Below, one piece after another: positions 16,354-19,519 of a stretch of 64,000 bases of DNA; the stretch's first letter is position 1, and the number at the start of each line of letters is the position of its first letter. This DNA is from Mycolicibacterium sp. GTDB taxonomy: Bacteria > Actinomycetota > Actinomycetes > Mycobacteriales > Mycobacteriaceae. The translations under genes and the position numbers were made by a program. The DNA lies in the NCBI RefSeq assembly GCF_016462945.1, contig NZ_JAEMSG010000001.1:1-64000 (forward strand), in the 5' to 3' direction. The notes beneath the pieces were generated by a model. It saw nothing but the letters and a program-made list of their open reading frames with translations, did no database searches and was not told the origin of the DNA.

Positions 16354-17652
16354 CTAGTTCTCGAGCTTTGGGCTGCCCGCGTCCGTAGCGATCGCCAGCC
16401 CAAGGTCCGCGAGTAGTGCGCTCGCTGCTCGGCGCCCACTCACTAAAGCTCCCTGGATAGACGACGTATCACGGTGGTCGCCGGCGACATAGATGCCACC
16501 CGCCGTGCGTACGGGCCGCTGCAATTCGAAGGGCACCGGCATCGCCGGTAGCGCGTAGGGAATCGGATAACTCGCGAGGAGTTCCCAGTCGCGCGTCGGA
16601 ACGCCGTACAACCACGCAAGGTGCTCGCGCACGGCGTGCTCGTCCCCAGGCGAGTCCCGCACACCGAGCGCCGACGCCGAAATCAGCGCGGTTCCGGCGG
16701 GGGCGTAATCGGGTGCGGCATGGGTGAGGACCACGGTGTTGACAAGTGGTCCGCGGCGATCGCCGTCGAGGATGAGCACCGCCTGCCCGTCGGCGAGATC
16801 CTCGGGCGCACAGGTGGGCCGGTAGTACCAGGTTGTTACCGAACGCGCCGCGGGGGCGCGGATCTGCTCGATGAGCCCGGCGGCGGTCACCGGATCGGTC
16901 GCGACGATGACGGCCTCGGCGCGGTGCGCGTCGCCACCGACGACATCAACAGTCCAACCCGAGACAGCCTGGGCCGAGACCGACGCAACCCGGTGGCCGA
17001 GTCGAACGTCGAGACCGGTCGCCAGTTGTTCGGGGATGCGGGCCATACCCAGTGCCGGCACGCCCGGTGTGCCGCGGACGAAGGACTTCAGTACCACGTC
17101 CAGGAAGCGCCGCGACGTCGTCAACTCGGAATCCAGAAAAACCCCGGACAGGAACGGGCGCAGCAGCCGCTCCATCAGCGTCCGATCCGCACCGGCGCGG
17201 CGCAGCGCCTCCTCGGTCGTGACGTCGGGGTCATTCTCCAGGGATTCAACGGTCCGGACGGCACGGGAGACCGCATAGGCGCCGAAGCGAGCCGTCGACG
17301 CCGGTGAGCCGATGCGCGCCACGAGCGACGGGACCAACCAGGTCGGTTCGCGACGTGGATCGGCGACTCGGTCCACCCGACGGCGCCCGGCCCGGTTGAC
17401 CACGATGCGTGCACCCGCGATGAAGGGCCTCAGGTCGAGTTCCGCGTGGTCGAGGACACGAGCCCCCTCGGGGTAGGCCGGGTTGTACAGCTGGAAGCCG
17501 CGATCGAAGCGGAAACCATCGACGAGATCGGTGCGCACGCGACCGCCCACGCCGTCGGAGGCTTCGAGCACCGTGACCTCGACACCGTGCCGAGTGAGAT
17601 GACGGGCGGCAGCAAGACCGGCCAGCCCTGCTCCCACGACGACGACAGCCAT
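16354..17652 (-). CDS. FAD-dependent amine oxidase / protoporphyrinogen oxidase-like oxidoreductase
   Basis: 432 residues. The FAD-binding Rossmann motif is at the very N-terminus (VVVVGAGLAGLAAARHLTRHGVEVTVLEA), followed by DGVGGRVRTD, the usual amine-oxidase second motif, and a C-terminal FAD motif (GIYVAGDHRDTSSIQGALVSGRRAA). The track start at 17808 adds 52 residues before the dinucleotide fold; the ATG at 17652 is right. Relatives are annotated as amine oxidases, desaturases or PPOX-like enzymes; the substrate is unknown. It is divergent from the photolyase-like gene, 66 bp apart, suggesting shared regulation. Confidence 0.8.
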   Translation of the reverse strand: MAVVVVGAGLAGLAAARHLTRHGVEVTVLEASDGVGGRVRTDLVDGFRFDRGFQLYNPAYPEGARVLDHAELDLRPFIAGARIVVNRAGRRRVDRVADPRREPTWLVPSLVARIGSPASTARFGAYAVSRAVRTVESLENDPDVTTEEALRRAGADRTLMERLLRPFLSGVFLDSELTTSRRFLDVVLKSFVRGTPGVPALGMARIPEQLATGLDVRLGHRVASVSAQAVSGWTVDVVGGDAHRAEAVIVATDPVTAAGLIEQIRAPAARSVTTWYYRPTCAPEDLADGQAVLILDGDRRGPLVNTVVLTHAAPDYAPAGTALISASALGVRDSPGDEHAVREHLAWLYGVPTRDWELLASYPIPYALPAMPVPFELQRPVRTAGGIYVAGDHRDTSSIQGALVSGRRAASALLADLGLAIATDAGSPKLEN

Positions 17653-17718
17653 GGCGGTCACGTTAGTCGCCCCGGGCCGCGATACTGAGGGCATGACAAC
17701 GCGCTGCACGGAAATCGC

Positions 17719-18957
17719 ATGACACCTCAGCGCCTCCCCGATCCCCCGGCGCACGATGAGGTCCCCGCCTGGGTGATGGACCATCTCGGGGATCTGTGCG
17801 CGCCCCAAGCATCAGCAACAGCCGGGTCCCTGCGCGGCGGCCAGTCGGCGGCCGATGCGGCGCTCCAGGCCTACGACGTGGCCGGGTATGCGCGGCGGCG
17901 CAACAACGTCTGGCCGCCGGGAACCCGCGGCGCGTCGCGACTGTCGCCCTATATCCGGCATGGGCTACTGACGCTGCGTGAGGTGTGGGATCACGTGGCC
18001 GGAGGTCCGCAAAGCGACGTGACGAAGTTTCGCGATGAGCTGCTCTGGCAGGAATACGCGCGACATCTCTACGCGCGCTTGGGAACAGCGTCGCGCCACT
18101 CATTTCGGTTCGTCGTTGACGAGCGTACCGCTGACACCGGTCCGGCACCGACGAGCAATCCGTGGTCATCGTCGGCGAAGTGTCTGGACTCATCCTGGTC
18201 GGAGCTGGTGTCGGACGGTTGGCTCACCAATCAGACCCGCATGTGGCTCGCCTCGCAGTGGAGTGTCCGCGAGGGGCTGGGCTGGCGCGACGGCGAAGAC
18301 CTGATGTACCGACACCTGGTGGACGGCTCCCGCGCAGCCAACCGGCTGGGCTGGCAATGGACCGTCGGCGCACTCACCGGCAAGGCCTACGGGTTCTCCC
18401 GATGGCAGGTGGAGAAGCGCGCACCGGGTCTGTGCGCGACCTGCCCGCTGGAACACAACTGTCCGATCACGGACTGGCCTGCCACCCAGGAGCGGGAGCC
18501 CCTGGCTTTCAGCGACCCCCGGCTGCGACGCGACGACAATCTCGCGGCGACGGCCGGACCGTCGACAGCCCAGCAGTCGGCGACGCCGGAGGCCGTGTGG
18601 ATGACCGCGGAGAGCCTCGGCGATCGCGACCCCGCGGCTGCGGCGTATCCGGACCTACCCGTGGTGTTCGTATTCGACGAGCCACTACTGCGCCGATTGC
18701 GGCTTTCGGTGAATCGGCTTGTCTTCCTTGCACAGTCGGTTGCCGACCTCTCGACGCGCAGGGAAGTTCAGCTCTGGCTCGGTGACCCGGTAGAGGTGCT
18801 GCAGGGCCGGCGACTGGCTGCCACCTTCGCACCCGTCCCAGGCTGGAAGTCCCGGGCCGCCCGCCTCGATGTGGTCGCGTTGCATCCATGGCCGTGGCTC
18901 CAGCGCCCGCGGTCAGGTTCGATAACCTCGTACACCGCATGGAGTAGGGGGCGGTGA
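17719..18957 (+). CDS. Photolyase/cryptochrome FAD-domain protein with unusual domain order
   Basis: 412 residues. Residues 40-260 match the alpha-helical FAD-binding domain of photolyases and cryptochromes (SRLSPYIRHGLLTLREVW, ELLWQEYARHLY, NQTRMWLASQW, YRHLVDGSRAANRLGWQWTVG). There is no N-terminal antenna domain. Instead a C-terminal segment (about 310-412, VVFVFDEPLLRRLRLSVNRLVFLAQSVADL) looks like a short photolyase alpha/beta fold placed after the FAD domain. Cys155, Cys239, Cys242 and Cys248 could hold an iron-sulfur cluster as in FeS-type bacterial photolyases. Likely a blue-light or DNA-repair flavoprotein. Its last codons recur at 14807. Confidence 0.8.
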   Translation: MTPQRLPDPPAHDEVPAWVMDHLGDLCAPQASATAGSLRGGQSAADAALQAYDVAGYARRRNNVWPPGTRGASRLSPYIRHGLLTLREVWDHVAGGPQSDVTKFRDELLWQEYARHLYARLGTASRHSFRFVVDERTADTGPAPTSNPWSSSAKCLDSSWSELVSDGWLTNQTRMWLASQWSVREGLGWRDGEDLMYRHLVDGSRAANRLGWQWTVGALTGKAYGFSRWQVEKRAPGLCATCPLEHNCPITDWPATQEREPLAFSDPRLRRDDNLAATAGPSTAQQSATPEAVWMTAESLGDRDPAAAAYPDLPVVFVFDEPLLRRLRLSVNRLVFLAQSVADLSTRREVQLWLGDPVEVLQGRRLAATFAPVPGWKSRAARLDVVALHPWPWLQRPRSGSITSYTAWSRGR

Positions 18958-18973: not shown

Positions 18974-19519
18974 CTAGTCGAGTCCCGGTAGTCCATCGAG
19001 GCTCACGGCGTTGCTCTTGGCCCGGTACGCGGCGAGTCCCTGCGGCCCCTTCTTGTCCGACCACAGGTCGAGCACGTCGCGATCGGCGACGTAGGCCATC
19101 TGCGGCACCGCGTAGCCGCAGGAGTCGGCGATCCGATCCACGTCAATGACGATGACTGACCGGGTGCCCGGATTCCGCGGAAACCGCTGCACCAATTCTG
19201 CGAACTCGGCATCGCCAGGTACTACCACTCGACCACGCCCGTGCAGTCGAACGATCTGCGGCCGCCCGTCGAACGCCGTGAACATCAGCACGATCCGGCC
19301 GTTTTCACGTAGATGGGCGATGGTCTCCACACCACTACCGGTGAGATCGAGATATGCGACAGTCGTTGGCCCCAGCACTGCGAAGGTTCCGATCCCGCCC
19401 TTCGGTGACGCATTGATCAACCCGTCGCCGGCCAGTGGTGCGGTGGCGACCACGAACATCGGCTGCGCGATGAGCCACGCTGCCATCTGATCATCGATCT
19501 GTTCGAAGACCTTCGCCAT
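18974..19519 (-). CDS. Pyridoxamine 5'-phosphate oxidase family protein
   Basis: 181 residues with the split-barrel FMN-binding fold: MFVVATAPLAGDGLINASPKGG, TVAYLDLTGSGVETIAHLRENGRIVLMF, and LHGRGRVV. This subgroup (PPOX, putative) is common in mycobacteria and binds FMN, F420 or heme; which one is not decidable here. It is not PdxH, since the PLP-binding C-terminus is absent. It converges with the photolyase-like gene, with 16 bp between stops. Confidence 0.82.
   Translation of the reverse strand: MAKVFEQIDDQMAAWLIAQPMFVVATAPLAGDGLINASPKGGIGTFAVLGPTTVAYLDLTGSGVETIAHLRENGRIVLMFTAFDGRPQIVRLHGRGRVVVPGDAEFAELVQRFPRNPGTRSVIVIDVDRIADSCGYAVPQMAYVADRDVLDLWSDKKGPQGLAAYRAKSNAVSLDGLPGLD

What the first reader, a model, noticed from the sequence alone, without database searches (positions are those of the whole stretch)
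17719..18957. Photolyase-like flavoprotein with FAD domain first, a short alpha/beta domain last, and four candidate FeS cysteines
Classical photolyases have the antenna domain at the N-terminus. Here it is absent and a photolyase-like short domain follows the FAD domain. Cys155 with CxxC-x5-C (239, 242, 248) resembles the cluster ligands of FeS-type photolyases. It is divergent from an FAD amine oxidase-like gene, so the pair may form a light- or redox-linked unit.
Basis: partly seen in the sequence, partly recalled or inferred. Interest (0 to 1): 0.6.

Follow-up and report, generated by a model that had tools for sequence, protein, structure and literature searches.

The report
Short iron-sulfur DNA photolyase, domains reversed
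This mycobacterial gene encodes a light-driven DNA-repair flavoprotein of an already described "short photolyase" class, with the usual two domains in reverse order and four fully conserved cysteines in the positions that hold an iron-sulfur cluster in related enzymes; it is a good new example of a known kind, with a few details worth following.

Summary
In detail: a 412-aa ORF at 17719-18957(+) begins with a photolyase FAD domain, lacks the N-terminal antenna domain and ends in an alpha/beta domain. Cys155/239/242/248 are invariant in all 82 aligned homologues and align column by column with the [4Fe-4S] ligand cysteines of FeS-BCP photolyases. The C-terminal domain is homologous to the photolyase N-terminal (antenna) domain: a separately encoded Deinococcus version matches Pfam PF00875, profile-profile E is 7e-10 via that bridge with null controls, and photolyases are the best fold matches. 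So the domain has moved, not vanished. The protein belongs to the published SPL/NewPHL class (short, inverted-topology CPD photolyases, reported for single-stranded DNA; some with FeS). It is not a FeS-BCP or class I photolyase, both of which the genome also encodes. The proposed functional pair with the divergent amine-oxidase-like gene is not supported: that neighbour occurs in only 4 of about 74 usable loci, all close relatives. Less expected: the Deinococcus split gene and three clade-wide active-site changes (R278Q, R342Q, D374S, E. coli numbering). Novelty: new member of a known kind. FeS content, FAD content and repair were not tested.

The parts
17719..18957 (+). Short photolyase-like (SPL/NewPHL-type) gene, 412 aa
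   Evidence: ORF list; full-length homologues; AlphaFold pLDDT 92.6
18028..18378 (+). FAD-binding core (residues 104-220), Pfam FAD_binding_7, profile positions 1-121 of 203; holds Glu107, Trp110, Asn171, Arg174, Trp189, Asn208, Trp212, Trp214
   Evidence: residue mapping to E. coli PhrB
18181..18183 (+). Cys155 codon, candidate FeS ligand 1
   Evidence: 82/82 invariant; aligns to FeS-BCP ligand column
18433..18435 (+). Cys239 codon, candidate FeS ligand 2
18442..18444 (+). Cys242 codon, candidate FeS ligand 3
18460..18462 (+). Cys248 codon, candidate FeS ligand 4 (followed by Pro249-Ile250)
18586..18954 (+). C-terminal alpha/beta domain (residues about 290-412), homologous to the photolyase N-terminal antenna domain (PF00875)
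16354..17652 (-). Divergent FAD amine-oxidase/HpnE-like gene (Amino_oxidase PF01593); neighbour, not shown to be part of the system
   Evidence: neighbour conserved only in L003, L004, L005, L015
17653..17718 (.). 66-bp intergenic region between the divergent genes; no sigma-70-like site found

Best explanation
The gene encodes a short photolyase of the SPL/NewPHL class in its four-cysteine (FeS) form. Shown by sequence and model: the N-terminal half is the catalytic FAD domain; residues 155, 239, 242 and 248 occupy the iron-sulfur ligand positions of FeS-type photolyases; and the C-terminal domain is the photolyase alpha/beta (antenna-type) domain moved behind the FAD domain. Inferred: the protein binds FAD and a [4Fe-4S] cluster. 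FAD is photoreduced through a shortened Trp chain (Trp212 and Trp189; no Trp aligns with the distal E. coli Trp306). Excited FADH- then donates an electron to a cyclobutane pyrimidine dimer stacked on Trp110/Trp214 and held by Glu107, Asn171 and Met175. Preference for single-stranded DNA is taken from reports on NewPHLs. The FeS cluster most likely has a structural role, replacing the missing last third of the usual FAD domain and tying the FAD domain to the C-terminal domain, which closes over the FAD site.
For: FAD_binding_7 match; best PDB relatives are class I CPD photolyases over residues 37-217. E. coli PhrB Glu274, Trp277, Asn341, Arg344, Met345, Trp359, Asp372, Asn378, Trp382 and Trp384 are all conserved. 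Four Cys invariant, aligned to FeS-BCP ligands with profile E 2e-8 and probability 95%. C-terminal domain: the split Deinococcus ORF hits PF00875 at 2.3e-4; profile-profile 2.5e-18 to the Deinococcus domain and 7e-10 from there to the photolyase N-domain, with ten shuffled, one reversed and one N-part control null; Foldseek's only hits with probability at least 0.97 among those listed are photolyases. Inverted topology and ssDNA CPD repair are reported for NewPHL/SPL; SPL described as a CPD photolyase with FeS cluster; a Trp dyad is reported for a NewPHL. All 16 Mycobacteriaceae genomes with a full-length copy also give a second, shorter photolyase-family match, which fits a complementary role.
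Against: No biochemistry was done here. Cys-Cys distances in the model were not measured. The actinobacterial clade has three unusual fixed changes at active-site positions (Arg278 to Gln111, Arg342 to Gln172, Asp374 to Ser204), so repair activity cannot be assumed from conservation alone. No bona fide published SPL or NewPHL sequence could be fetched for a direct comparison, and the two founding papers are not held.
Confidence: 0.82

Rival explanations
1. It is a blue-light photoreceptor (cryptochrome-like) or a repair enzyme with altered substrate rather than a CPD photolyase.
For: In all 14 actinobacterial proteins compared, the positions corresponding to E. coli Arg278 and Arg342 (DNA-contact positions, from general knowledge) are Gln, and the flavin-site Asp374 is Ser, whereas Deinococcus and alphaproteobacterial relatives keep Arg278 and Asp374. 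The genome already has a class I photolyase and an FeS-BCP.
Against: The CPD-binding Glu, Trp, Asn and Met and the stacking Trp are all kept, and class members are reported to repair CPDs. No signalling domain or regulator is fused to it or recurrent next to it.
Confidence: 0.1
2. The four cysteines hold zinc or form disulfides, not an FeS cluster.
For: CxxC-x5-C with a distant Cys could in principle bind Zn; metal content was not tested.
Against: Same columns as the cluster ligands of FeS-BCPs; the alphaproteobacterial branch lacks all four together; SPLs are described with an FeS cluster.
Confidence: 0.07
3. The gene and the divergent FAD amine-oxidase-like gene form one light- or redox-linked unit.
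For: Divergent, 66 bp apart; some other short-photolyase genes have a different, renalase-like flavoprotein gene just upstream (L064, L065, L080 and two Asticcacaulis plasmids).
Against: The window's neighbour occurs in only 4 of about 74 loci with enough upstream sequence, all close relatives, and in one of them (L015) on the opposite strand. It is HpnE-like rather than renalase-like.
Confidence: 0.03

Closest known systems
SPL (short photolyase-like) class, Xu et al. 2021 (cited in PMC9649867, PMC9498864, PMC9178010)
   Same: No N-terminal alpha/beta domain, class I-like FAD and substrate residues, four conserved Cys for an FeS cluster, CPD repair expected.
   Different: SPLs are described as lacking the alpha/beta domain; here that domain is shown to be present at the C-terminus. 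The founding paper could not be read.
NewPHL, Emmerich et al. 2020 (cited in PMC13274461, PMC12083526, PMC8948257)
   Same: Inverted topology (catalytic domain first, second domain last); Trp chain reduced to a dyad.
   Different: Alphaproteobacterial inverted-topology proteins examined here lack all four Cys and keep Arg278 and Asp374 equivalents.
FeS-BCP / prokaryotic (6-4) photolyases (PhrB, CryB; PDB 4dja, 3zxs)
   Same: Four Cys at homologous positions.
   Different: FeS-BCPs have an N-terminal DPRP (PF04244) domain and CxxC-x(about 12)-C; this protein has neither. A separate FeS-BCP is in the same genome.
Class I CPD photolyases (PDB 1owl, 1dnp, 1iqr)
   Same: Most FAD- and CPD-contact residues; closest by sequence over the FAD core.
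   Different: Class I has the antenna domain first and a full FAD_binding_7 domain, and no FeS Cys.
Deinococcus plasmid proteins (WP_114673394.1; WP_249396019.1 + WP_249396018.1)
   Same: Same domain order and four Cys; the C-terminal domain is clearly homologous.
   Different: In Deinococcus sp. QL22 the two domains are separate overlapping genes.

Membership tests
SPL/NewPHL short photolyases | FAD domain at the N-terminus, no N-terminal alpha/beta domain | tested here: met
SPL/NewPHL short photolyases | C-terminal second domain (inverted topology) | tested here: met
SPL/NewPHL short photolyases | Class I-like FAD and CPD contact residues | tested here: met
   with Arg278, Arg342 and Asp374 exchanged
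SPL/NewPHL short photolyases | Four conserved Cys for an FeS cluster (reported for part of the class) | tested here: met
   the cluster itself not tested
SPL/NewPHL short photolyases | Falls in one clade with published SPL/NewPHL sequences | tested here: inconclusive
   No published member sequence could be fetched. In the FAD-core tree actinobacterial, Deinococcus and alphaproteobacterial inverted-topology proteins do not form one supported clade (the program flags long branches)
SPL/NewPHL short photolyases | Light-dependent CPD repair, single-stranded DNA | not testable with these tools
   needs purified protein
FeS-BCP (prokaryotic 6-4 photolyase) | Four FeS-ligand Cys | tested here: met
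FeS-BCP (prokaryotic 6-4 photolyase) | N-terminal DPRP (PF04244) domain | tested here: not met
   (no match); the genome's FeS-BCP is elsewhere
FeS-BCP (prokaryotic 6-4 photolyase) | CxxC followed by about 12 residues and the last Cys | tested here: not met
   x5 in 82/82; about x12 in FeS-BCPs
Class I CPD photolyase | N-terminal PF00875 domain followed by full FAD_binding_7 | tested here: not met

The most novel reading that the evidence does not exclude
The short photolyases have not lost the photolyase alpha/beta (antenna) domain: they carry it permuted to the C-terminus, and Deinococcus sp. QL22 keeps the two domains as separate adjacent genes. That undercuts the argument that their lack of this domain makes them the ancestral state, and suggests that the two-domain photolyase arose from, or can pass through, a two-gene form fused in either order. 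In addition, the actinobacterial FeS branch carries a fixed Gln/Gln/Ser active site of unknown effect.
Probability: 0.6. Interest if true: 0.5.

Novelty: new member of a known kind. Interest (0 to 1): 0.33.

Why it matters
Short photolyases have been proposed as the root of the photolyase/cryptochrome family, and have been described as lacking the alpha/beta domain. Evidence that the domain is present but moved changes what such arguments rest on and is directly testable by structure. A genome with three photolyases (class I, FeS-BCP and this one) also gives a clean setting to separate their roles. The gene itself is one of many: at least 255 matched stretches in the genome collection.

Tried and rejected
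Gene-pair idea: tested on 79 loci, rejected as a general feature. Phage origin: one viral-contig scan with the family profile confirmed no relative, and phage records hold only ordinary photolyase matches. Membership of FeS-BCP or class I: rejected on domain content. Foldseek of the full-length model covers mainly the FAD domain because the alignment is sequential (about 200-285 columns, TMq at most 0.46), so it neither shows nor refutes the permutation; the C-terminal domain was therefore modelled alone. A weak WhiB3 match over CxxC-x5-C (E about 0.3) was taken as shared motif spacing only. DUF2256, a frequent neighbour in other genomes, is absent from this genome. A short upstream ATG frame whose stop overlaps the start codon of the gene (about 17692-17721) is seen in some close relatives but not in most and was dropped. 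One sigma-70/terminator scan gave nothing useful. Literature searches for active-site residue numbers and for DUF2256 with photolyase found nothing.

Full report
Observation. The ORF at 17719-18957(+) starts with ATG and encodes 412 aa. Pfam finds only FAD_binding_7, residues 104-220, covering the first 121 of 203 profile positions. There is no PF00875 antenna domain in front. The gene is one of two FAD_binding_7 loci in the genome.

Family. A scan of the genome collection matched 275 stretches, 255 of them confirmed relatives. The 80 kept loci are mainly Actinomycetota, with nearly all full-length, at 54-95% identity. In 82 aligned sequences (the query included) Cys155, Cys239, Cys242 and Cys248 are invariant and the spacing CxxC-x5-C is constant. 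Cys27 is conserved in only 17. Within a sample of 151 genomes of the family, 16 carry a full-length copy and all 16 also give a second, shorter photolyase-family match.

Iron-sulfur ligands. FeS-BCP proteins were collected from genomes of the same order with PF04244. Profile comparison with the present family (probability 95%, E 2e-8) aligns all four cysteines with the four FeS-BCP ligand columns, with a 7-residue shorter CxxC-to-C loop here; a joint alignment shows the same. Inverted-topology proteins on alphaproteobacterial plasmids lack all four, Deinococcus proteins have all four, and class I photolyases have none. That the cysteines bind a [4Fe-4S] cluster is an inference from this correspondence. 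Their distances in the model could not be read.

C-terminal domain. AlphaFold models the whole protein with pLDDT 92.6 and pTM 0.91, and the C-terminal domain alone with pLDDT 89.8. Among the listed PDB matches of that domain the three with probability 0.97 or more are all class II photolyases, although no match reaches E 0.001. By sequence, the direct profile match to photolyase N-terminal domains is modest (E 1e-5 in one run, 2e-4 in another). Deinococcus proteins bridge it: actinobacterial to Deinococcus domain E 2.5e-18, Deinococcus domain to photolyase N-domain E 7e-10. Ten column-shuffled, one reversed and one N-part control gave nothing. In Deinococcus sp. QL22 the domain is a separate ORF overlapping the FAD/Cys ORF, and that ORF alone matches PF00875 at 2.3e-4, in order but below Pfam's curated cut-off. 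The domain is therefore relocated rather than lost.

Active site. Mapping to E. coli PhrB keeps Tyr222, Glu274, Trp277, Asn341, Arg344, Met345, Trp359, Asp372, Asn378, Trp382 and Trp384. No Trp aligns with Trp306, leaving a Trp dyad, as reported for a NewPHL. Arg278, Arg342 and Asp374 are Gln111, Gln172 and Ser204 in all 14 actinobacterial sequences compared, and these positions are also invariant in the 61-sequence alignment. Their roles are from general knowledge (DNA and flavin contacts), not tested.

Tree. In an FAD-core tree (37 rows) the actinobacterial, alphaproteobacterial, class I and FeS-BCP groups are each one side of a branch with strong support; Deinococcus is weakly grouped. Relations among the inverted-topology groups are unresolved, and the program warns of long branches.

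Neighbourhood. The divergent amine-oxidase-like gene is HpnE-like by best score but well below that family's cut-off. It recurs in L003, L004, L005 and L015 only. Other relatives have a DUF2256-DUF3253 gene just upstream (14 loci, 13 of them within 600 bp), ilvC upstream (12 loci) and serA directly downstream (18 loci), or a renalase-like flavoprotein gene upstream (L064, L065, L080). There is no support for a conserved pair.

Known class. [quoted passage not shown] The founding papers (Emmerich 2020; Xu 2021) are not held. From memory, the abstract of Xu et al. reports FAD, an FeS cluster and CPD repair for a Rhodococcus fascians member; this is a lead, not a test. Whether the relocation of the alpha/beta domain has been noted in print could not be established; one search found nothing.

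Conclusion.

Noticed in passing
L084:3004-4295 (Deinococcus sp. QL22 plasmid, NZ_CP097153.1): FAD/four-Cys domain and the antenna-type alpha/beta domain are two overlapping genes (ATGA overlap); the second is annotated hypothetical and matches PF00875 weakly.
   Followed up: yes
L021, L022, L024, L025 and about 10 other loci, directly upstream of the short-photolyase gene: A small DUF2256-DUF3253 gene lies next to the short-photolyase gene; no DUF2256 is found in the window's genome.
   Followed up: partly
L064, L065, L080; L086:1995-2939; L148:1067-2011: A renalase-like FAD oxidoreductase gene sits just upstream of inverted-topology photolyase genes in Acidimicrobiia and, separately, in Asticcacaulis plasmids.
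   Followed up: partly
G000:C71 (L112), G000:C115 (L124): The genome also has a class I photolyase and an FeS-BCP with its four Cys, a three-enzyme set like that reported for Synechococcus elongatus (PMC9178010).
   Followed up: partly
17719-18957, codons 111, 172, 204: Fixed Gln/Gln/Ser in the actinobacterial clade at positions that are Arg/Arg/Asp in class I photolyases.
   Followed up: partly
18974-19519: Convergent PNPOx-like (PPOX-type flavoprotein) gene downstream; among the loci checked it is seen in L003 only.
   Followed up: no
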